Source: Nocardiopsis terrae
Lineage (GTDB): Bacteria; Actinomycetota; Actinomycetes; Streptosporangiales; Streptosporangiaceae
Assembly: GCF_014651695.1 (NCBI RefSeq)
Contig: NZ_BMXJ01000005.1
Coordinates: 1-64,000, forward strand
Direction: 5' to 3'
Length of the DNA stretch: 64,000 bases
Shown: positions 1-10,367 of the stretch, in pieces
Numbering within the stretch: position 1 is the stretch's first letter
How the letters are laid out: every line of letters begins with the position of its first letter
The notes under the pieces: model-generated
What the model saw: only the letters and a program-made list of their open reading frames with translations
What the model was told of the DNA's origin: nothing
Database searches by the model: none
Made by a program: the position numbers and the translations under genes

Positions 1-638
1 GGTCCATCCCCACGTGCGTGGGGCTCACGTCGGGGGCGGTCTCGATCGTGACCTGGGCGGCGGTCCATCCCCACGTGCGTGGGGCTCACCCCAGCCGCGG
101 CTGGGACGACATCGGGTACAGCGGTCCATCCCCACGTGCGTGGGGCTCACCACACCAGTCGGTGCGGGGTGCTCTTCGTCTGCGGTCCATCCCCACGTGC
201 GTGGGGCTCACGGTGAGGTACGGGTCCCACTCCTCAACCGGGACGGTCCATCCCCACGTGCGTGGGGCTCACCGAAGCCCTCGAACTCGGGGCCGCCCTC
301 GGGGAGGTCCATCCCCACGTGCGTGGGGCTCACGGGCTGGTTCCCCGATCTGGGCTCCGCGTTGACGGTCCATCCCCACGTGCGTGGGGCTCACAGGATG
401 TCCCCGTCCCGGAGCTGGCCCGTGCCCGGTCCATCCCCACGTGCGTGGGGCTCACGTGGAGAAGGGATGGGAGCGGGGCGCGGTCTCCGGTCCATCCCCA
501 CGTGCGTGGGGCTCACTGGAGCGTGTACACCTCCGGCCGGTACAAGCTCGGTCCATCCCCACGTGCGTGGGGCTCACGACACGGCCGCGGTGGCGCGCGC
601 CATGACCGGCGGTCCATCCCCACGTGCGTGGGGCTCAC
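1..638 (-). CRISPR. Type I-E CRISPR array, 11 repeats visible, runs off left edge
   Basis: Eleven identical 28-nt repeats start at 1, 62, 123, 184, 245, 306, 367, 428, 489, 550 and 611, a strict 61-nt period with 33-nt intervals. On the minus strand the repeat reads GTGAGCCCC...GGACC, with the 7-bp hairpin CCCCACG-CA-CGTGGGG typical of I-E repeats. The base that follows the repeat on that strand is G in 9 of 10 cases (T at 305). This fits a 29-nt repeat whose last G comes from an AAG PAM. Orientation and the adjacent cas3 put the leader on the right and the newest spacers near 610. The array continues beyond the window, so its length is unknown. Confidence 0.98.
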
Positions 639-801: not shown

Positions 802-3618
802 GTGACCGCGGTTCCTCCCGACACCCCCTCCTACTTCGATCTCAGGCTCTGGGCCAAAGAACGCGGCCTTCACGGCCAGCGATACCCCTACGTCTGCCAC
901 GCACTCGACAGCGTCGCCGCTGCCCTGGAGATCTGGGACGCCTGCCTCCCTCAAGGTCTGAGACACCGCATCAGCACCGGACTGGGAGTAGCAGAACCGC
1001 ACGCTCGCTCGTTGATCGCCTTCTGGGCCGGGTGCCACGACACCGGGAAACTCGTACGGCACTTCCAGGAGCAGGTCCCCACAGACCTCGCCGCCTACCC
1101 AACCGAACCCGGCGAGCAGAAGGGCCACGCGCTCGTCACCGCGGAATGGCTCACGACAGCCCTCCCCAAACTCGGCTACACCGACGACGAGTACGTCGCC
1201 GCTCTTGTCGCTCAACTCCTGGGCGGACACCACGGCGTCTACCCCGCCCCGTTGGACGAGTTCCGCGATCCCTTCACCGGGTTCGGGTTCGCGCAGGGCC
1301 TCTGGGAGGAGCAGCGCGAACGCGCCATGCTCCTGGCTCATGAACTCTCCGGGGCACCCGCCCCACCGTCTCGGTTGGAGACCCCCGCAGCCGCCCTGAT
1401 CTGCGGGCTCGTCATCCTCGCGGACTGGCTGGTCAGCCAGGAACACTTCATCCTGGAACAGCTGAGGACCCCACCCGCCGATGGCAGCCGCGCCTCTCTG
1501 CGAGGACACTACGAGCGCTCACGCGCCGCACTCCCCGCACTCGTCACCTCCGCGGGTCTAGGCCCTCTCACCGTCTCCCCTGCGACCTTCACGGAGTCCT
1601 TCCCCAACCTCACCACACCCAACGGCCTCCAGGAATCCCTCGCCCGCCACCTGCCGAAACTCTGCACGGAGGGCGGCCTGGTCCTGATCACCGCTCCCCC
1701 GGGCGAGGGCAAAACCGAGGCCGCCCTCCACACCTCCGATCTTCTGGGTAAGGCCACCGGCCGGGACGGACGCTTCGTCGCCCTTCCCACCATGGCCACG
1801 GCCGACCACATGCACACCCGGCTCAGGGAGTACGCGACCCGTCGCGCCACCACCTCGGCCCCGCTCGCCCTCCTGCACTCCATGGCCTGGCTGAACCCGG
1901 ACTACGCACCCGCACCACCCCCGCCCGGCACCTCCACCGTGCTGTCAGGCACCCGCGAAAACTCAGGTTCTGGCGCGGTCCGCTCCGCCTTCGACATCAC
2001 CGAGTGGCTGCTGGGCAACAAACGCGGGCTCCTGGCCTCCTGGTCCGTGGGCACGATCGACCAGGCACTCATGGCCGCGCTCCCCTCCCGGCACAACGCG
2101 GTCCGCATGTTCGGGCTCGCCGGGAAAGTGGTGGTCATCGACGAAGTGCACTCCGTGGACCCGTACATGCAGACCCTGCTCGAACGCCTGCTGCACTGGC
2201 TGGGCGCCTTCGGCACCCCCGTCGTCCTGCTGTCGGCCACCGTGCACCACTCCACCGCCAACGCGCTGGTGGAGGCCTACCTCCAGGGTTCCCGGGGCCG
2301 GAAGCGCAGACGCTCCGAGCCCAGACCCGTGCCCTCGATCCAGTACCCGGGATGGCTCCACGTGCACCCCGGCACCGGAGCGGTCTCCGCCAACCCGGAG
2401 CCCGTCCCCACCACCGAGCGGCGCCCCCTGACAGTCGACCTCGCGCCTGTCCCCTTGGACGGAGGCCGGGCGGACCGCGCCGCCGTGCTCCACGAACAAC
2501 TGGCGCCTCTGGTGGAGGAGGGCGGATGCGCGGCGGTCATCTGCACCACCGTCGCGGAGGCCCAGGCAACCCGGGACCTGCTGGCCGAATGGTTCGCGAA
2601 GGTCGATGCCGCCGGGGGCCGCGCCCCGGAACTCCACCTCCTGCACGCACGGTTCCCGCAGGAGCAGAGGACCGCGATCACCGACCAGATCATCACGCGG
2701 TTCGGCAAGGAGGGCGCGGAACAGGGAAAACGCCCCGAATCCGCGGTCGTCGTGGCCACCCAGGTCATCGAACAGTCCCTGGACCTGGACGTGGACCTGT
2801 TGGTCACCGACCTGGCGCCGGTCGGCCTGCTCCTGCAACGCGCGGGCCGGTGCTGGCGGCACGAACACCTGGGCACCGTCGCCCGTCCGCCCTGGTCCCG
2901 TGGACCGCGCATGGCGGTCCTGGTTCCGGCGGAGGAGGACAGTGCCAAGCACCTCCCGCGATCGTGGGGGTTCGTGTACCCGCCCTCCCTGCTCATGCGC
3001 ACACACAACCTGCTGCGGCGCAGGGCCAGCGCGCCGGTTCGTGTTCCGGAGGACGTGCAGACGCTGGTGGACGACCTCCACGACGACGAGACGCTCATCG
3101 AGGACGTGGCGATCGACATCCGCCGTCTCGGCGAGGAGATGGCGCTGCGCGCACACGGCCGCAACGCGGTCATCCCCACCGTCAAACAGTTGGGGGACGA
3201 CCTGCATCCGCTCACGGCCGTCGATTTCGAACTCGGCGAGCACTTCCTCGCGACGAGGTTCGGCGCCGACTCGGTCCGGGTCCTGTGCTGTTACGAGGAC
3301 CGGTGGGGGCGACGCTGGCTGGACTCCGAGCAGACACGTCCGCTCCCCGAACCGGGTCCACGCGGGCGGGTCGAACACGAGGACCTGCGGGCGGTGATCT
3401 CCCGGACGATTCCCCTGCGCGCGGACCACCACACCCAGCCCCCTCTGGCCGAGGCCAACCGGGTGCCAGAGTCCTGGGCCGAGGAGTTCCACCTGCGCGA
3501 CCTGGTGATGCTCGTGCACGGAGTCGCTGACGACGGCACCGTCACCCCCGCCCGGTTGGGTGAGCGTGCGCTGTTCCTCAGCACGGTGAACGGCTTGGAG
3601 GAGGCCAAAGAAAAATAA
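802..3618 (+). CDS. cas3: CRISPR-associated nuclease-helicase Cas3 (type I-E)
   Basis: Cas3 is the effector that Cascade recruits; it nicks, unwinds and degrades the displaced target strand. The 938-residue product has an N-terminal HD nuclease (CHDTGK with H79-D80, GGHH at about 141-144). A superfamily 2 helicase follows, with Walker A PPGEGKT (K304), DEVH at 447-450, LLSATV, and motif VI QRAGR at 679-683. I chose GTG at 802 because GGAG lies at 789-792 and the frame further upstream only reads through CRISPR repeats. The gene is separated from cas8e by 345 nt that hold a mini-CRISPR module, so it is probably transcribed separately from the Cascade operon. Confidence 0.96.
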   Translation: MTAVPPDTPSYFDLRLWAKERGLHGQRYPYVCHALDSVAAALEIWDACLPQGLRHRISTGLGVAEPHARSLIAFWAGCHDTGKLVRHFQEQVPTDLAAYPTEPGEQKGHALVTAEWLTTALPKLGYTDDEYVAALVAQLLGGHHGVYPAPLDEFRDPFTGFGFAQGLWEEQRERAMLLAHELSGAPAPPSRLETPAAALICGLVILADWLVSQEHFILEQLRTPPADGSRASLRGHYERSRAALPALVTSAGLGPLTVSPATFTESFPNLTTPNGLQESLARHLPKLCTEGGLVLITAPPGEGKTEAALHTSDLLGKATGRDGRFVALPTMATADHMHTRLREYATRRATTSAPLALLHSMAWLNPDYAPAPPPPGTSTVLSGTRENSGSGAVRSAFDITEWLLGNKRGLLASWSVGTIDQALMAALPSRHNAVRMFGLAGKVVVIDEVHSVDPYMQTLLERLLHWLGAFGTPVVLLSATVHHSTANALVEAYLQGSRGRKRRRSEPRPVPSIQYPGWLHVHPGTGAVSANPEPVPTTERRPLTVDLAPVPLDGGRADRAAVLHEQLAPLVEEGGCAAVICTTVAEAQATRDLLAEWFAKVDAAGGRAPELHLLHARFPQEQRTAITDQIITRFGKEGAEQGKRPESAVVVATQVIEQSLDLDVDLLVTDLAPVGLLLQRAGRCWRHEHLGTVARPPWSRGPRMAVLVPAEEDSAKHLPRSWGFVYPPSLLMRTHNLLRRRASAPVRVPEDVQTLVDDLHDDETLIEDVAIDIRRLGEEMALRAHGRNAVIPTVKQLGDDLHPLTAVDFELGEHFLATRFGADSVRVLCCYEDRWGRRWLDSEQTRPLPEPGPRGRVEHEDLRAVISRTIPLRADHHTQPPLAEANRVPESWAEEFHLRDLVMLVHGVADDGTVTPARLGERALFLSTVNGLEEAKEK

Positions 3619-3638
3619 CCGATGCGCGTTAGACCCTT
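3604..3638 (-). promoter_or_regulatory. Predicted Cascade target site (protospacer plus AAG PAM) of the mini-CRISPR guide
   Basis: On the minus strand, AAG at 3638-3636 is followed by a sequence matching the guide encoded at 3885-3916. Guide positions 1-18 (3635 down to 3618) agree except at positions 6 (3630) and 12 (3624); beyond 18 the match stops. In Escherichia coli Cascade every sixth guide base is flipped out and does not pair, so the mismatches fall exactly where they are tolerated. The site begins inside the last cas3 codons and ends 4 nt before a TATGAG box. A match this short would be expected to support binding and repression rather than efficient Cas3 cleavage. That is inference from the known CreA/CreR mechanism. 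Confidence 0.75.
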
Positions 3639-3642
3639 CGAG

Positions 3643-3648
3643 TATGAG
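3643..3648 (+). promoter_or_regulatory. Candidate -10 box TATGAG for the small transcript between cas3 and cas8e
   Basis: TATGAG matches TATAAT at four of six bases and lies 4 nt downstream of the predicted Cascade target. No good -35 is visible; the -35 zone (about 3620-3625) would be covered by bound Cascade. A hairpin CTGACCCTT-N7-AGGGGTCAG (3652-3676) would form at the very start of the transcript. Confidence 0.4.
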
Positions 3649-3704
3649 AGGCTGACCCTTGGAAGGCAGGGGTCAGGTTCGTTGTACGACTAGATGGGTG
3701 GAAC

Positions 3705-3806
3705 ATGCAGGTTTCGTTCGACAAGGACGCGATGCGAAGCATCGGCTGGTTCATCAGCGGTCTGCTCGTCGCAACTCTGCTGGATCTCAGCAGGTTCTTG
3801 GGCTGA
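3705..3806 (+). CDS. 33-residue hydrophobic peptide ORF, candidate CreT-like toxin
   Basis: ATG at 3705 is preceded by GGGTGG and opens a 33-codon frame. The product has a charged N-terminus (FDKDAMR) followed by one hydrophobic segment (residues about 13-28, GWFISGLLVATLLDLS), like small membrane-acting peptides. I recognise no family. Codon use is unlike the neighbours: it includes CGA, AGG, TTG, ACT, GCA and GAT in a locally less GC-rich stretch. It has its own candidate promoter upstream and a strong hairpin just after the stop, so it looks like a separate short transcription unit rather than part of the cas8e mRNA. Its position between a Cascade target and a mini-CRISPR suggests the toxin half of a CreTA pair. 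It may equally be a chance ORF in a regulatory RNA. Confidence 0.4.
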   Translation: MQVSFDKDAMRSIGWFISGLLVATLLDLSRFLG

Positions 3807-3809
3807 GGT

Positions 3810-3849
3810 GATGCTGACCACCAGGGCACTTTCACTGGAGGTCAGCATC
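3810..3849. terminator. Hairpin between small ORF and mini-CRISPR, probably bidirectional
   Basis: GATGCTGACC (3810-3819) pairs perfectly with GGTCAGCATC (3840-3849). After an A/A mismatch, CCAG pairs with CTGG inside, leaving a 10-nt loop. It starts four bases after the small ORF stop and lies 7 nt beyond the leftward mini-CRISPR, so it could end both convergent transcripts. Confidence 0.6.
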
Positions 3850-3856
3850 CCAACTC

Positions 3857-3944
3857 CATCCACCCCCACGTGCGTGGGGCTAATGACAGCCTGTCTTACC
3901 GATTCGCGTGAGACCCGGCCCATCTCCACATGCGTGAAGAACAT
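3857..3944 (-). CRISPR. Degenerate two-repeat mini-CRISPR, candidate CreA/CreR guide RNA
   Basis: Two repeat-like units (3857-3884, 23 of 28 bases identical to the array repeat; 3917-3944, 20 of 28) flank one 32-nt spacer-like sequence at 3885-3916, giving a 60-nt period. Orientation is the same as the main array (minus strand). The right-hand unit, which would supply the 5' handle, keeps AUGG(G)CCG with one change. It also keeps its hairpin through compensatory changes (CTTCACG-CA-TGTGGAG still pairs throughout with G-U wobbles). The left-hand hairpin is unchanged. The guide matches the site at 3618-3635 with an AAG PAM. CreTA and CreR modules are known from other type I systems; assignment here is by architecture. 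Confidence 0.8.
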
Positions 3945-3963
3945 CAGTAAGGCAATCTCTATC

Positions 3964-5562
3964 ATGGTTGACCAGCGACAAGAAAAAGATCATCCCTCCT
4001 TCGACCTGACCACCGAACCGTGGCTTCCCGTGCGTCTCCCCGACGGGACCGCCGGTCCACCGGTCGGCCTACGTGAGTTGCTGTGCCGCGCGCACGAGTT
4101 CTCCGACGTCGAACTCCCCCTGCCTCCTGCCTCCGCGCAACTGTGGCGCGTGCTAGCGCTCATCACCGCCCGGGTCACCGGCCTGGACACCTCCGAAGGC
4201 GCCTCCGAATGGCAGCAGCGACGCCGGGAAATCCTCAATGCCGGAGAGTTCTCCGAGTCGGATGTGGACGCCTACCTCAGCCCCCTCAAGGAACGGTTCG
4301 ACCTCTTCCACCCCGAGCGCCCCTGGCTCCAGGACCCACGGCTGCGAGAGGAGTGCGCCAAGTCGTCCGGGGTGAACAAGCTCGCCTGGGGGCGGACCGC
4401 CGGGCAGAACCAGGTGTGGCTGGGCGGCCACCACCACGACCTGGACCCGGTTCCGCTCTCCCCCGACGAAGCCTCCTGGCACCTCCTGGCCACCCTGGGC
4501 TACGGCCCCTCGGGGCGCTGCACCTCGCGCACGGTCGACGGCCGCTCCGAGGCCAACAGCACCGCGGGTCCGCTGCGCGGCACCGTCTCCTTCCACCCGA
4601 TGGGCCGGAACCTGTTCGAGAGCCTGGTAGTCAACGTTCCCCTCCCGAACGAGGAGGAGACCGAGGGTGCGAGCCCCGAACCCGCCCCGTGGGAACGGGA
4701 CCAACTCCCCGACCCGTTGGGCCTGCCCGGGGAGTCCACCGGCCTCGCCGGGCTCCTGGTCAACCAGTTCCGCCACGCGGTACTGCTCACCCCGGGTACC
4801 GACGGCTCACAGGTGGTGGACGCGCACGTCACCTGGGCGCTCCGAGAGCGCCAGGTCGCACCCACGGACCCCCATCTCATCCACCTGACCAGCAAGGACG
4901 GACGCAAGTACGCGCGCCCTGCCGATGCCTCCCGCGCGGTCTGGCGCGACCTGGAGTCGCTCCTGGCGGAAAGCACCCAGGAACGCTTCCGCCCCGAGCT
5001 GTTCACCCAGCTCACCAGCAGGAGCCGCCTGCCCCTCGAACTGCGCGAGGCGCTGCGGCTGCGCGCCTTCGGCTTCGACCAGGACGGCCAGACCCGCGAC
5101 CGGCAGTGGTTCACCTCCCGCACCCCCGCGGTGCTGCGGTGGTTGCAGGAGTCCTCGGACTCCGCCGAGGACAACACCCGCGCCCTCACCAGGATCAGGG
5201 CCACCCGCGAGGCGGCCGAACGCAGCGGGCGGCGGCTCCGGGACGCGCTGACCTCCGCGTGGAAGGAGAGCAACAGCCCCTCAGGCGGGACCGGCGGAAC
5301 CGAGACCGGGACGGGCCCGTGGCTGCGCGCCGGGTCGGCGCGGTACTGGTCCACCGCCGAGGAGCTGTTCTGGAGGACCGTCATGGACGAGGACTCCACC
5401 GGGCCGGGCAACGGCTTCATCGTGCTGGCTTTGAGGGCCTACGACGAGGTGACCGCCTCCTACTGTTTCCGTCCCCGGGTGGCGAAGGCGGTCGAACAAC
5501 ACCGCCGCCGCCTGCTCGACGGGTGGACCCGTGGACGCAACGACGAAGAGGACGCCGCATGA
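3964..5562 (+). CDS. cas8e: Cascade large subunit Cas8e (Cse1/CasA)
   Basis: This is the large subunit of the type I-E Cascade complex. It reads the PAM and recruits Cas3. The 532-residue protein opens with the family signature LTTEPWLPVR near residue 15 and contains the conserved block GRCTSRTVDGRSEANSTAGP followed by FHPMGRNLFESLVVNVP. ATG at 3964 gives a normal Cse1 N-terminus, with a weak AAGG about 9 nt upstream. Its stop overlaps the cse2 start (ATGA), showing translational coupling. Its upstream region contains the mini-CRISPR, so the operon may be controlled by Cascade itself. Confidence 0.95.
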   Translation: MVDQRQEKDHPSFDLTTEPWLPVRLPDGTAGPPVGLRELLCRAHEFSDVELPLPPASAQLWRVLALITARVTGLDTSEGASEWQQRRREILNAGEFSESDVDAYLSPLKERFDLFHPERPWLQDPRLREECAKSSGVNKLAWGRTAGQNQVWLGGHHHDLDPVPLSPDEASWHLLATLGYGPSGRCTSRTVDGRSEANSTAGPLRGTVSFHPMGRNLFESLVVNVPLPNEEETEGASPEPAPWERDQLPDPLGLPGESTGLAGLLVNQFRHAVLLTPGTDGSQVVDAHVTWALRERQVAPTDPHLIHLTSKDGRKYARPADASRAVWRDLESLLAESTQERFRPELFTQLTSRSRLPLELREALRLRAFGFDQDGQTRDRQWFTSRTPAVLRWLQESSDSAEDNTRALTRIRATREAAERSGRRLRDALTSAWKESNSPSGGTGGTETGTGPWLRAGSARYWSTAEELFWRTVMDEDSTGPGNGFIVLALRAYDEVTASYCFRPRVAKAVEQHRRRLLDGWTRGRNDEEDAA

Positions 5563-6377
5563 GCAGCTCCACCGAGCACGACATCCGTACCGAGATCCGC
5601 AGCGCGGCCGACCGCATGGCGCGCGATCTCACCAGACGGGTCGCGGACGAACCCGCGGTCCGGGCCACTCTGCGCCGGGGCGTGGGGCGTCGCGTGGAGG
5701 ATCCGGCCATGCTGCCCCTGCACGCCTTCGTCACCCCCTACCTCGGCGATCTGCACGAACGCCCCCGCCCAGGTTGGAGCCCGACCCCGGGGGAGGCCGT
5801 GGAGCGTGCCTTCTACGCCGTCGCGACCCTCATCGCCGCCCAACCCCGCCAGGTGCGGGACCGGGACGCCGAACACGGTCCGGGCTCAGGGGCCGCTGAG
5901 GAGCGGGGTGGTGCCGACGGGGTGAGGGAAACCGAAGGGCCTGCCTCCGAGGAAACCGAGGCATTCGTTCCCCAGGACTCGGCCGAGTCACACGACGTTC
6001 CCGAACCCTCCGAGCCCGGGGGAGGCCAAGGCCCCGGGGGCCGTTACGGACTGGGCTCCACCCTCGGCACGGCCGTGGGTGAGGGACTGATCAGCAACGC
6101 CGACGCCACCGAGCAGCGCCTGCACCTGCTGTGCCGCCAGTCCCTGGACGGGGTACACGCCCAGCTCCCCCGCCTGCTGGCGCACGCCCGTGTGCAGGGC
6201 GCGCGGACCGACTGGGGGCAGTTGGTCCTGGACCTGGCCCGCTGGGGCGGCGAGCGCGACCGTGTGGCCAAGGAGTGGGCCCAGGGGTTCCACCGCTCCC
6301 TCGGGACAGCCAGACACACCGCGTCCAAGAACACCGAAACCACCGAGAACACCAACCAAGAGGGCAGCGCCGCATGA
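5559..6377 (+). CDS. cse2: Cascade small subunit Cse2 (CasB/Cas11) with a low-complexity insertion
   Basis: Cse2 is an alpha-helical Cascade subunit that lines the complex and stabilises the R-loop. The protein has 272 residues, clearly longer than the usual roughly 160-200. The excess is a Gly/Glu/Pro-rich acidic linker at about residues 98-163. The flanking parts look like Cse2: an N-terminal helical half with RRGVGRRVEDPAMLPLHAFV, and a C-terminal half with LLCRQSLDGVHAQLPRLLAHAR and DWGQLVLDLARWG. It overlaps cas8e (ATGA) and cas7 (ATGA). Identification rests partly on operon position. Confidence 0.9.
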   Translation: MSSSTEHDIRTEIRSAADRMARDLTRRVADEPAVRATLRRGVGRRVEDPAMLPLHAFVTPYLGDLHERPRPGWSPTPGEAVERAFYAVATLIAAQPRQVRDRDAEHGPGSGAAEERGGADGVRETEGPASEETEAFVPQDSAESHDVPEPSEPGGGQGPGGRYGLGSTLGTAVGEGLISNADATEQRLHLLCRQSLDGVHAQLPRLLAHARVQGARTDWGQLVLDLARWGGERDRVAKEWAQGFHRSLGTARHTASKNTETTENTNQEGSAA

Positions 6378-7507
6378 GCACGCCGAAGTTCCTGGACGTC
6401 CACGTCCTCCAGACACTCCCCTACTCCAACGTCAACCGCGACGACCTGGGCTCCCCCAAGTCGGTCGTCTACGGCGGCGCGGAGCGGACGAGGATCTCCA
6501 GCCAGAGCTGGAAGCGAACGGTTCGCCACCAGGTCGAGGAGAACCTGGGCGACCCGGCCGTGCGCACCCGCCGGATCACCGGCCAGATCGCCGAACGGCT
6601 CGTGGCACGGGGCTGGGACGCGAAGCTGGCCGAGAACGGGGGCCGCCAGATCGTCCTGTCCGCGGCCAAGGGCGGGATCAAGCTGGAGAAGGAGAAGGAG
6701 GGCGAACCCCCGGTCACCTCCGTGCTGTTCTACCTGCCCGTCTCCGCGATCGACGCCCTCTCCGACATCGCCGCCGAGCACCGGGAGGAGATCGCGAAGG
6801 AGTCGGCGAAGAAGAGCCCCAAGGCGGTCCTGCCCGCCGACGCCATCGTGGACGTGCTCAGGAGCCGCAACGCCACGGTCAACCTGTTCGGGCGCATGCT
6901 CGCCGAACTGCCCAGCACCGAGGTCGACGGCGCGGTGCAGTTCGCCCACGCCTTCACCACACACGGCACCAGCGTGGAGGTCGACTTCTTCACCGCCGTG
7001 GACGACGTGCCGAAGGAGAACGACCGGGGCAGCGGCCACATGAACGCGGGCCAGTTCAGCACCGGTACGTTCTACCGCTACGCCAACATCGACCTCGCGG
7101 GCCTGGCCCGCAACCTGGACGGAGACACGGACACGGCCCGTGAACTGGTGACGGAGTTCGTCCGGGCCTTCCTGTCCACCGTGCCCTCGGGCAAACAGAA
7201 CGCGACCGCGGCCGCCACCCTGCCCGACCTGGCCTATGTGGCGGTGCGCTCGGACCGGCCGGTGTCGTTCGCCCCCGCCTTCGAGTCGGCGGTACGGGGC
7301 GAGTCCGGTTTCGCGGCCGCCTCGCGCGACCGCCTCTCCGAGTACGCGGGCAGGATCGGGGAGCTGTGGTGGCCCGACACCATCGTCACCGAGTGTCACA
7401 CCGGCATCGACACCAAGCCCGTGGAACACCTGGGTGCCCGCGCTACCGGTTTCCCGGCCCTGGTCGAGAGCGCCGTGGCGGGCGCCTACGGGCCGGTCGG
7501 CTCGTGA
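6374..7507 (+). CDS. cas7e: Cascade backbone subunit Cas7e (Cse4/CasC)
   Basis: Six copies of this protein form the crRNA-binding backbone of Cascade. The 377-residue product begins FLDVHVLQTLPYSNVNRDDLGSPK and continues with GAERTRISSQSWKR, the hallmark of Cse4. Other family features are GAVQFAHAFTTHGTSVEVDFFTAVDD and STGTFYRYANIDL. ATG at 6374 overlaps the cse2 stop (ATGA). The thumb insertion of each Cas7 is what forces every sixth guide base out of the duplex, which matters for reading the mini-CRISPR target match upstream. Confidence 0.96.
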   Translation: MSTPKFLDVHVLQTLPYSNVNRDDLGSPKSVVYGGAERTRISSQSWKRTVRHQVEENLGDPAVRTRRITGQIAERLVARGWDAKLAENGGRQIVLSAAKGGIKLEKEKEGEPPVTSVLFYLPVSAIDALSDIAAEHREEIAKESAKKSPKAVLPADAIVDVLRSRNATVNLFGRMLAELPSTEVDGAVQFAHAFTTHGTSVEVDFFTAVDDVPKENDRGSGHMNAGQFSTGTFYRYANIDLAGLARNLDGDTDTARELVTEFVRAFLSTVPSGKQNATAAATLPDLAYVAVRSDRPVSFAPAFESAVRGESGFAAASRDRLSEYAGRIGELWWPDTIVTECHTGIDTKPVEHLGARATGFPALVESAVAGAYGPVGS

Positions 7508-8277
7508 GCGGGCTGCTCCTGCGGCTCGCCGGCCCCATGCAGAGTTGGGGGGAGCACAGCACCTTCGGTGAACGCGACACCCTCCCCTACCCCAGCAGGT
7601 CGGGGCTGGTGGGGATGTTCGCCGCCGCTCAGGGAGTGGGACGCGGCGAGCCGCTGGAACGGTACGACGACCTGCGGCTGACCGTGCGTGTGGACTCCCC
7701 GGGGCTGCGCATGAGCGATTTCCAGACGGTCGGCGGAGGGCTGCCGCGCGGACGCACGGTGCCCACCGCCGAGGGCAAACGCCGCCCGGAGAACACCACC
7801 ACGATCGTCACCAGGAAGGCCTTCCTGGCCGACGCGGTGTTCACCGTGGCCGTCACCGGTCCGGGGACCGAGGGCATCGGCACGGCGTTGGCTTCGCCGC
7901 ACTGGCAGACCTACCTGGGCAGGCGGTCCTTCGTTCCCGATCCTCTGTTCCTGCTCCGCCGTGATGTCACCGACCCGGTGGCGGAGCTGCGGGGCGGGGT
8001 GCCGCTCCCCCGGCTGCGCGTGCCCGTGGGAGCGGAGTCCGTGGCCGTCGACCTCGTGGTGGAGGGCGGCGCGGGCAGCGAGAGCGGTTCCGAACGTGTG
8101 CGTGCGCAGAGCCGTGCCACGCTCAACGACGTGCCGCGCTCCTTCGACTCACACCGGCGCCTGTATGCGAGCCGGGAGGTGCGGGTGGACTCCGTCCCGG
8201 TTCCCGTCTCCCTGGTCTCACGAGGGTGGCGCGACTACCAAGAACGCCTGTTCCGCTACGTCAAGGAGCATCGTTGA
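7504..8277 (+). CDS. cas5e: Cascade subunit Cas5e (CasD)
   Basis: Cas5e caps the crRNA 5' handle in Cascade. The 257-residue sequence starts SGLLLRLAGPMQSWGEHSTF and continues GERDTLPYPSRSGLVGMFAAAQG, a clear Cas5e signature. GTG at 7504 overlaps the cas7 stop (GTGA), so I take it as the coupled start. It also contains DFQTVGGG and the C-terminal SLVSRGWRDYQERLF. Between cas7e and cas6e, as in standard I-E operons. Confidence 0.95.
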   Translation: MSGLLLRLAGPMQSWGEHSTFGERDTLPYPSRSGLVGMFAAAQGVGRGEPLERYDDLRLTVRVDSPGLRMSDFQTVGGGLPRGRTVPTAEGKRRPENTTTIVTRKAFLADAVFTVAVTGPGTEGIGTALASPHWQTYLGRRSFVPDPLFLLRRDVTDPVAELRGGVPLPRLRVPVGAESVAVDLVVEGGAGSESGSERVRAQSRATLNDVPRSFDSHRRLYASREVRVDSVPVPVSLVSRGWRDYQERLFRYVKEHR

Positions 8278-8978
8278 CCTGGCTCACGAAGATCGTCCCC
8301 GACCTGGGCTCCCGCCGGGCCCGGTCCTGTTTCGGCAGCGCGGGGGAACTGCACCGCCTCGTGATCGGCCTGGCCGCGCACAGCCTGGGCGAGGAGCGGG
8401 TGGAGTCGCCCCGCCAGCGCGCCGGTCTGCTGTTCCGGGTGGAGGAGACGCGGGGCGCACCCGTACTGCTGGTTCAGAGCTCCGGATCCCTGAATGCGGA
8501 CGCCCTGGGTGCCGGGTTCGGGTCGATGGTGGAACGGGACCTGACCCCCTTCCTGGAAGGGCTGGAGAAGGGCACGGAGGTGCGCTACCGCATCGCGGCA
8601 GCCCCCAGCAAGCGGTTGGGAAAGTCGGATCTGAACGCCGAACGGTTGGGGAAGCGAGCCGAACGGCTCGGTGAGCTGGCCCAACCCGGTAAGCGCACGT
8701 ACACGAGGCCGCTCTTCGGTGAACAGGCGGAACAGTGGTGGCGGGAACGGGCGCAGCGCCACGGGCTCGACCTGAGCGACGTCGTCAGCTCGGGCGCTGT
8801 CCCCTCCCTGGACCAGGGCCGCACCGGAAAACGGGGTGTGCGCATCCACGTGACCAGGTTCGACGGGCACGCGGTGGTCCGCGATCCCGACGCGCTACGC
8901 GAGGCGGTCCGCAACGGGATCGGGCGGGGCAAATCCTTCGGCTGCGGGATGCTCAGCCTCGCCCCGGCGGGGTGGTGA
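8274..8978 (+). CDS. cas6e: CRISPR RNA endoribonuclease Cas6e (CasE)
   Basis: Cas6e cuts pre-crRNA at the base of the repeat hairpin and stays on the 3' end. The 234-residue protein starts LTWLTKIVPDL and ends with the glycine-rich loop GIGRGKSFGCGMLSLAP that defines Cas6e. TTG at 8274 overlaps the cas5 stop (TTGA) and has a strong AAGGAG at 8263-8268, which decides the start. It would have to process both the main array and the mini-CRISPR transcript; the conserved hairpins in both are consistent with that. Confidence 0.94.
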   Translation: MTWLTKIVPDLGSRRARSCFGSAGELHRLVIGLAAHSLGEERVESPRQRAGLLFRVEETRGAPVLLVQSSGSLNADALGAGFGSMVERDLTPFLEGLEKGTEVRYRIAAAPSKRLGKSDLNAERLGKRAERLGELAQPGKRTYTRPLFGEQAEQWWRERAQRHGLDLSDVVSSGAVPSLDQGRTGKRGVRIHVTRFDGHAVVRDPDALREAVRNGIGRGKSFGCGMLSLAPAGW

Positions 8979-9964
8979 CCTCCGTGAACGGTGAGATGGC
9001 AGCACGCAAGGCGCTGGCCCGGCCGACCCTGGCGATGCTGCCCCGGGTCTCGGACAACCTGTCGTTCCTGTACGTGGACATCTGCCGGATCGTGCAGACC
9101 GACACCGGGGTGTGCGCCGAGGTCGCGGCGGGCGCGGGGTCAGTGCACCGGGTTCCGATCCCGACGGCCGCGTTGGCCTGTGTCCTGCTGGGGCCGGGGA
9201 CGTCGATCACGGCCCCTGCCCTGGCCACCTTCATGCGGCACGGAACGACCGTGGTGGCTTCGGGGGCAGGTGGAATCCTGCACTACGGCAACCTGACCCC
9301 CGAGGCCAGGACCACGCTGTGGCTGGACCGCCAGGTGCGCGCCTACGCCGATGACACCCGCCGCCTGGACGTGGCACAGCACATGTACGAGCTGCGCTTC
9401 GGGGAGGAGGTGGAGGAGGGGACGAGCATCGAGCGGCTGCGTGCGCTGGAGGGGCAGCGTATGAAGGCGCTGTACCGGCAACTCGCCGCCAAGCACCGGG
9501 TGAAGCCGTTCAAGCGCAGTTACGACCCCGCGTCGTGGGACGAGCAGAACCCGGTGAACAAGGCGCTGTCCGCGGGCAACGCCGCGCTGTACGGGGTGGT
9601 GCACTCGGTCGTCTCGCACCTGGGGTGCTCGCCCGCGCTGGGGTTCGTGCACACAGGGAGTCAGCGCTCGTTCGTGTACGACGTCGCCGACCTGTACAAG
9701 GCGGAGACAACGATCCCGTTGGCCTTCTCCCTGCACGACTCCACCGGCCCGGACGGCACGGCCCGGTTCCGGCTGCGGAGCGAGCTGAAGTTGTACCGGA
9801 TGATCCCCAGGATCGTGCGCGACATCCAGCGGCTCCTCGCCCCGGACCTCGACGCGGACGAAGAGGAGGACACCTCACCCGACCGCTGGCAGGTGGTGGA
9901 CCTGTGGGACCCCACAGCGGGTTCCGTGGCCGGTGGTGTGAACTACGCCGAGGACGGCGTCTGA
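8975..9964 (+). CDS. cas1: CRISPR integrase Cas1 (type I-E)
   Basis: Cas1 with Cas2 inserts new spacers at the leader end. The 329-residue protein has the I-E features FLYVDICRIVQTDTGV and, in the C-terminal domain, a catalytic Glu in LEGQRMKALYRQLA plus His and Asp in GFVHTGSQRSFVYDVADLYK. GTG at 8975 overlaps the cas6e stop (GTGA) and is chosen for coupling; GTG 8984 and ATG 8996 are alternatives without better ribosome binding sites. It appears intact, so adaptation is probably functional. Confidence 0.95.
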   Translation: MTSVNGEMAARKALARPTLAMLPRVSDNLSFLYVDICRIVQTDTGVCAEVAAGAGSVHRVPIPTAALACVLLGPGTSITAPALATFMRHGTTVVASGAGGILHYGNLTPEARTTLWLDRQVRAYADDTRRLDVAQHMYELRFGEEVEEGTSIERLRALEGQRMKALYRQLAAKHRVKPFKRSYDPASWDEQNPVNKALSAGNAALYGVVHSVVSHLGCSPALGFVHTGSQRSFVYDVADLYKAETTIPLAFSLHDSTGPDGTARFRLRSELKLYRMIPRIVRDIQRLLAPDLDADEEEDTSPDRWQVVDLWDPTAGSVAGGVNYAEDGV

Positions 9965-10302
9965 TGGGCACGATGGTGGTGATCTCCACGACGGCGGTTC
10001 CCGACCGTGTGCGGGGGTCCCTGTCCCGGTGGATGGTGGAGCCGAAGGCGGGGCTCTACGTGGGAACGATGAGCGCGCGCGTGCGGGAGAGGCTGTGGAC
10101 GGCCGTGAGCGAAACCGTGGGTGAGGGCGCCGCGGTGTGTCTGCACACCGCGGACAACGAGCAGGGGTTCGTCATCCTGACGGCCGGTGAGCGCCGTCGT
10201 CAGGTGGTGGACTTCGACGGGCTCCAACTGGTGCAGTTCCTCGCACGACCGGACGAGGACGGTGGGGAGCCGGAGTGGCAGGAACTACCCGAGGGGTGGT
10301 GA
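9964..10302 (+). CDS. cas2: CRISPR adaptation protein Cas2 (type I-E)
   Basis: This is the dimeric partner of Cas1 in spacer capture. The 112-residue protein has the Cas2e fold signature MVVISTTAVPDRVRGSLSRW near its start, then EPKAGLYVGTMSARVRERLW. ATG at 9964 overlaps the cas1 stop (TGATG). It is the last gene of the operon; 37 nt further on is a single decayed CRISPR repeat. Confidence 0.95.
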   Translation: MGTMVVISTTAVPDRVRGSLSRWMVEPKAGLYVGTMSARVRERLWTAVSETVGEGAAVCLHTADNEQGFVILTAGERRRQVVDFDGLQLVQFLARPDEDGGEPEWQELPEGW

Positions 10303-10339
10303 GGCGAGACGGCCCCTCGCGTTTCCACAGGTCGTGAAG

Positions 10340-10367
10340 GTAAGCCCCACGCACGTGACACAGGCTC
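10340..10367 (+). repeat. Orphan degenerate CRISPR repeat after cas2
   Basis: GTAAGCCCCACGCACGTG (10340-10357) matches 17 of the first 18 bases of the array repeat, after which the match decays (20 of 28 overall). It is on the plus strand, opposite to the main array. No second copy lies 60-61 nt to either side. The outer hairpin pairs are lost and only CACG/CGTG remains. It is probably the last remnant of a former array downstream of cas2. Confidence 0.7.

What the first reader, a model, noticed from the sequence alone, without database searches (positions are those of the whole stretch)
3917..3944. Compensatory changes keep the hairpin of the diverged mini-CRISPR repeat
The array stem is CCCCACG-CA-CGTGGGG. 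In the diverged repeat it reads CTTCACG-CA-TGTGGAG: the second pair has changed from C-G to U-A, and the others remain paired directly or as G-U. The 8-nt 5' handle differs at a single base. Random decay would break the stem, so selection on Cas6e processing and handle recognition is implied.
Basis: seen in the sequence. Interest (0 to 1): 0.65.

Follow-up and report, generated by a model that had tools for sequence, protein, structure and literature searches.

The report
CRISPR-guided repressor of hidden membrane-peptide gene
The odd CRISPR repeat is the front half of a small guide-RNA gene with which a Nocardiopsis CRISPR system probably silences a tiny neighbouring membrane-peptide gene, most likely a toxin that would punish loss or inhibition of the CRISPR machinery; the same arrangement recurs across many actinobacteria.

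Summary
The diverged repeat is real and on the minus strand. Its hairpin is kept by a compensated C-G to U-A change plus a U·G pair, and its handle differs at one base. The stem is 6 bp with a 4-nt loop, not 7 bp with a 2-nt loop. One sequence is weak evidence (2-12% by chance), but 19 such first repeats plus the array repeat covary strongly (100% paired, 18 double changes, 0/500 shuffles).

What it is: ψR1 of a two-repeat, 31-nt-spacer guide gene (3857-3944) between cas3 and cse1 of an intact type I-E locus. The guide matches a site at the end of cas3 (3605-3638) with PAM AAG. Positions 1-18 match except 6 and 12, the bases Cascade flips out. Between site and guide lies a 33-aa single-TM ORF with a ribosome-binding site, followed by a terminator-like hairpin.

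A PAM-blind search of ~107 actinobacterial regions gives 44 such pairs with AAG against 40 spread over all other PAMs; positions 6, 12 and 18 mismatch at the random 75%. Nine of 13 long-spaced loci carry a 33-42-aa single-TM ORF (0.08 expected).

Best reading: a type I-E CreTA-like module, as in Citrobacter rodentium, here with single-TM peptides as putative toxins. Toxicity and repression are untested.

The parts
1..638 (-). CRISPR array, 11 identical I-E repeats, 61-nt period; the window starts inside it
802..3618 (+). cas3 (start codon approximate)
   Evidence: TIGR01587 and TIGR01596 above cut-off; PADLOC Cas3e 3.7e-185
3605..3635 (-). guide target (protospacer); positions 1-18 match except 6 and 12; overlaps the 3' end of cas3
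   Evidence: in the whole genome the only other match within 2 mismatches is the guide itself
3636..3638 (-). PAM 5'-AAG-3'
3652..3676 (+). 10-bp hairpin in the presumed 5' UTR
   Evidence: -16.7 kcal/mol
3705..3806 (+). 33-aa single-TM ORF MQVSFDKDAMRSIGWFISGLLVATLLDLSRFLG (putative CreT), SD-like GGGTGGA upstream
   Evidence: GC3 82%; shuffle frequency 0
3810..3849 (.). strong hairpin, terminator-like, between the ORF and the guide gene
   Evidence: -28.2 kcal/mol, z -6.2
3857..3884 (-). psiR2, second repeat of the guide gene; stem intact, handle decayed
3885..3915 (-). psiS, 31-nt spacer GGTCTCACGCGAATCGGTAAGACAGGCTGTC
3916..3944 (-). psiR1, the diverged repeat of the finding plus its last base; supplies handle AUGGGCCG
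3964..5562 (+). cse1 (cas8e), first gene of the Cascade operon
   Evidence: TIGR02547, 204.5 bits
8226..8978 (+). cas6e, the presumed processing enzyme
   Evidence: TIGR01907; PADLOC Cas6e 3.8e-38
5559..10302 (+). rest of the I-E operon: putative cse2 by position, cas7e, cas5e, cas6e, cas1e, cas2e
   Evidence: no family hit for the putative cse2, 5559-6377

Best explanation
This is a type I-E CreTA-like module. The - strand element psiR1-spacer-psiR2 (3857-3944) is transcribed, Cas6e cuts both hairpins, and the resulting crRNA-like guide (CreA: 8-nt handle, 31-nt spacer, 3' hairpin) loads into Cascade. Because its match to the site at 3605-3638 is only partial (seed and first 18 nt, no distal match), Cascade binds next to PAM AAG without destroying the chromosome and blocks transcription of the small gene at 3705-3806. 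If Cascade is lost or inhibited by anti-CRISPRs, the 33-aa single-TM peptide is made and probably damages the membrane or arrests growth, as type I toxin peptides do. Shown by sequence: the guide anatomy, the self-match with PAM, free sixth positions, hairpin covariation, and recurrence with different spacers in many species. Inferred: transcription, Cas6e processing, repression and toxicity.
For: Guide-target match at all 15 non-flipped positions among 1-18, with AAG. Genome-wide the only other match within 2 mismatches is the guide itself. PAM-blind survey: 44 of 84 pairs have AAG, the next most frequent PAM 3. In those 44 pairs, positions 6, 12 and 18 (not scored) mismatch 33, 34 and 32 times, the random 75%; positions 1-5, 7, 8 and 10 mismatch 0-2 times and position 11 four times. 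Spacers differ between species but each matches its own target. A TM ORF with Shine-Dalgarno-like site is in 9 of 13 long-spaced loci, 0.08 expected, 0 on the reverse strand; GC3 is raised in nearly all; a strong hairpin follows the stop codon in most. psiR1 hairpin covariation. Intact cas genes including cas6e. In genome G168 the module is duplicated and the copy that lost its guide has a target that the other copy's guide still matches. Precedents: C. rodentium I-E CreT in the same cas3-casA interval, which must be translated (PMC12055562), and the psiR1/psiR2 asymmetry of known CreTA (PMC9458426).
Against: No expression or toxicity data. No good -10/-35 was found at the window's target (TATGAG at 3642-3647 is weak). 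The small ORFs share no clear sequence homology (3-23% identity) and those tested hit no family in Pfam or PADLOC. The same guide-target arrangement occurs in many loci with no ORF and 79-138 nt spacing, so the ancestral role may be repression of something else. L056 keeps the guide although its ORF is broken, and L112 and L076 have long spacing without such an ORF.
Confidence: 0.75

Rival explanations
1. CreR: the guide represses the promoter of the cas operon itself (autorepression), and the small ORF is incidental or a leader peptide.
For: CreRs are known for I-E (PMC13131331). Many actinobacterial loci have the same guide and target with no room for an ORF, and a -10-like hexamer lies close to the PAM in many of them (18 hits against 5.7 expected in the 0-10 nt window).
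Against: In the window a strong terminator-like hairpin and the antisense guide gene lie between the target and cse1. TM ORFs are far above chance in the long-spaced loci.
Confidence: 0.15
2. The small peptide is Cascade-repressed but not a toxin: for example a membrane sensor or signal released when Cascade is busy or blocked.
For: Toxicity is untested and the sequences are diverse; one relative (L056) has lost the ORF but kept the guide.
Against: Small size and position match the translated CreT of C. rodentium (PMC12055562), and a single TM segment is typical of type I toxins (own knowledge); in the duplicated G168 module the remaining guide still matches both targets.
Confidence: 0.08
3. 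Decayed leftover of a CRISPR array with no present function.
For: Degenerate repeat; only two repeats.
Against: A PAM-blind self-match recurring with different spacers in many species and covarying hairpins are not expected from decay.
Confidence: 0.02

Closest known systems
CreTA of Citrobacter rodentium type I-E (PMC12055562)
   Same: I-E; cas3-casA interval; ~100-bp ORF that must be translated; crRNA-like guide on the opposite strand; PAM-flanked target upstream of the ORF
   Different: There the guide lies upstream of the ORF and the PAM is ATG; its CreT had no homologues in the authors' BLAST. Here the guide lies downstream, the PAM is AAG, and the putative toxins are single-TM peptides in actinobacteria; function untested here
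CreTA of haloarchaea (I-B) and Acinetobacter (I-F) (PMC8501985, PMC9458426, PMC10097628)
   Same: Degenerate repeats flanking a spacer with partial match to a PAM-flanked site; psiR1 keeps the handle while psiR2 loses it; psiR1 more diverged
   Different: CreT there is an RNA toxin; haloarchaeal repeats have no conserved hairpin, whereas here the hairpin covaries as expected for Cas6e
CreR (cas-regulating RNA) of I-B, I-E and V-A (PMC13131331, PMC12737573)
   Same: crRNA-like RNA with limited complementarity to a nearby promoter; I-E included
   Different: Represses cas genes, no toxin; the short-spaced actinobacterial loci may be this
Type I toxin peptides (Hok/TisB-like; from own knowledge)
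   Same: About 30-50 aa, one hydrophobic helix
   Different: Controlled by antisense RNA, not by Cascade; no family hit for the small ORFs

Membership tests
CreTA | crRNA-like guide with repeat-like flank(s) outside the array | tested here: met
   psiR1, 31-nt spacer and psiR2 at 3857-3944
CreTA | Spacer partially matches a PAM-flanked site nearby | tested here: met
   AAG plus 15/15 non-flipped positions
CreTA | The site overlaps the promoter of the adjacent toxin gene | tested here: inconclusive
   Site is 67 nt upstream of the ORF; no convincing promoter in the window
CreTA | Adjacent small gene is toxic when derepressed | not testable with these tools
   Only the single-TM ORF and its recurrence are shown
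CreTA | Guide processed by Cas6 and loaded in Cascade | not testable with these tools
   Hairpin covariation and free sixth positions are consistent
CreR | Target is the cas operon promoter, no toxin gene | tested here: inconclusive
   A small ORF and terminator-like hairpin lie between target and cse1; transcription unknown
Type I-E CRISPR-Cas | cas3, cse1, cas7e, cas5e, cas6e, cas1e, cas2e | tested here: met
   (the putative cse2 had no family hit)

The most novel reading that the evidence does not exclude
Actinobacterial I-E loci share one regulatory site between cas3 and cse1 where a Cascade guide controls either a short ORF-less unit or one of a large, sequence-diverse set of single-TM peptide toxins, so that cas regulation and toxin addiction turn into one another at the same place, serving as a general alarm against anti-CRISPRs.
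Probability: 0.4. Interest if true: 0.75.

Novelty: new variant of a known kind. Interest (0 to 1): 0.6.

Why it matters
If true, it extends CRISPR-guarded toxin modules, so far shown in a few archaea and proteobacteria, to a wide range of actinobacteria and to a new class of putative toxin (single-TM peptides). The many natural guide-target pairs form a ready data set on how Cascade binds with mismatches without triggering cleavage, and they show that in a hairpin-reading Cas6e system the degenerate repeats keep their structure. The addiction and anti-anti-CRISPR idea becomes testable in laboratory actinobacteria.

Tried and rejected
Reading the element as array decay: rejected by the self-match statistics. 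A first scan used loci in the wrong orientation for minus-strand hits and missed many; it was redone. Homology of the small ORFs: no Pfam or PADLOC hit, alignment too weak, no clear homologue of the 33-aa ORF in 40 genus genomes (best E 0.18). Rfam: only sub-threshold matches. Sigma-70 scan: nothing in 3500-4050. G168 seemed to have a small ORF without its guide; the guide was found in a duplicated upstream copy. The Shmakov 2023 survey of CRISPR-derived regulatory elements is not held; it may list some of these loci. L146 is probably a false positive and was left out later. Structure prediction of the 33-aa peptide was not run; it would add little.

Full report
Observation. The repeat at 3917-3944 is as described, read on the - strand like the array. 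Its RNA folds into a 6-bp stem with a 4-nt loop (-7.8 kcal/mol; the other strand gives -3.8), with C-G replaced by U-A at pair 2 and by U·G at pair 3. Three stem changes would keep all pairs by chance in 2.4-12% of simulations, so one sequence is only suggestive.

The element. ψR1 (3916-3944), a 31-nt spacer (3885-3915) and ψR2 (3857-3884) form a two-repeat mini-CRISPR between cas3 and cse1 of an intact I-E locus (the putative cse2 had no family hit). ψR1 keeps the handle (one change) and diverges in the stem; ψR2 keeps the stem and loses the handle. This is the asymmetry described for CreA genes, where the first repeat keeps the Cas5-binding handle and the second loses it (PMC9458426).

The target. 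The spacer matches a site on the same strand starting at 3635 with PAM AAG: positions 1-18 are identical except 6 and 12. In type I-E Cascade every sixth base of the guide is flipped out and does not pair (established knowledge). Nothing else in the 6-Mb genome matches within 2 mismatches, apart from the guide itself.

Statistics across loci. Upstream regions of cse1 were collected from whole genomes and named contigs; a few genomes are represented twice, but identical source-target pairs were counted once. A search that asked only for a purine-rich stretch and handle start before the source and a seed match, with the PAM left free, found 84 unique source-target pairs. 44 have AAG; the next most frequent PAM has 3. 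Block-shuffled sequence gave 48 pairs, and AAG was not among its five commonest PAMs. In the 44 AAG pairs, positions 6, 12 and 18, which were not scored, mismatch in 33, 34 and 32 cases, the random 75%, while positions 1-5, 7, 8 and 10 mismatch in 0-2 and position 11 in 4. One of the 39 loci (L146) is probably a false positive. The spacers differ from locus to locus, so guide and target change together.

Hairpin. For 19 ψR1 copies plus the window's array repeat, all 120 pair cells are standard pairs, 18 are changed on both sides, the covariation score is 0.487 against 0.271 +/- 0.032 in shuffles (0/500), and slid structures drop to 43-62% paired. These 19 were chosen for having the standard 16-nt stem-loop geometry, which favours paired cells, and some covariation may follow from each host's own array repeat. 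In one search, 30 of 36 distinct ψR1 copies scored a stem of 5 bp or more directly before the handle; the other six scored low only because their arms pair through the loop, and all six are rows of the alignment, where they pair fully. L117 needs a longer loop.

What lies between. In loci with 206-341 nt between target and guide, 9 of 13 have a 33-42 aa ORF with a Shine-Dalgarno-like site and a single hydrophobic segment, against 0.08 expected from dinucleotide shuffles and none on the reverse strand. L117 has a further such ORF that fails only the Shine-Dalgarno filter. L050 among these has a weaker guide-target match (10 of 15). GC3 exceeds GC1 and GC2 in nearly all, and a strong hairpin follows the stop codon in most. 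The window's ORF is MQVSFDKDAMRSIGWFISGLLVATLLDLSRFLG at 3705-3806, 67 nt from the target, followed by a -28 kcal/mol hairpin. L056 has a broken version of the ORF of L055. L076 and L112 have none.

Duplicated module. A Thermobifida-group genome (G168) has two copies of the ORF and target. One copy has both guide repeats; in the other the repeat-spacer unit has collapsed to one repeat. The remaining guide matches both targets. This fits the published idea that undegenerated repeats are lost by recombination (PMC9458426) and that each toxin copy must stay covered; for this genome both points are inference.

Short class. Many loci (Streptomyces, Actinomadura, Kitasatospora, Micromonospora and others) have the guide 79-138 nt from its target with no ORF between. 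A -10-like hexamer lies within 0-10 nt of the PAM 18 times against 5.7 expected, and several have a strong hairpin right after it (by eye). These may be CreR or RNA-type CreT.

Known or new. C. rodentium carries a translated I-E CreT in the same interval (PMC12055562), and CreRs are known for I-E (PMC13131331). The mechanism is therefore known; the actinobacterial spread and the single-TM peptides were not found described in the held library. The 2023 CreR paper and the Shmakov 2023 survey could not be read here, so part of this may already be listed there.

Confidence. That this is a Cascade guide with a self-target: about 0.95. That the small ORF is the repressed gene and a toxin: about 0.75.

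Noticed in passing
L150 (G168:C1:1470381-1473397), two modules at about 1287-1540 and 2704-2895 of the locus: Duplicated module; the copy nearest cse1 has lost the repeat-spacer unit, apparently by recombination between its near-identical repeats, and the other copy's guide matches both targets.
   Followed up: yes
L056 (Nocardiopsis sp. CNR-923), upstream of cse1: The small ORF is broken compared with its relative L055, yet guide and target are kept.
   Followed up: partly
short-spaced loci such as L065, L085, L094, L095, L098, L105: Guide and AAG target 79-138 nt apart, no ORF, often a -10-like box beside the PAM and a strong hairpin right after it; CreR or RNA toxin unresolved.
   Followed up: partly
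L031, L068, L078, L110, L116: One guide with two AAG-flanked targets in the same interval.
   Followed up: no
window 10339-10358: Lone half repeat GTAAGCCCCACGCACGTG just after cas2.
   Followed up: no
G000 contig C3 (138196 on, 311260 on, 669317 on): Further arrays with repeat GTGAGCCCCGCGCACGCGGGGATGGACC or a GTAAG variant, differing from the window array by an A-U to G-C stem pair; C3 also begins with the window's repeat, so C3 and C5 may be neighbours split in the array.
   Followed up: no
L058 (Nocardiopsis salina), 1115 and 1133 of the upstream region: The guide's better target has PAM ACG and a weaker one has AAG.
   Followed up: no
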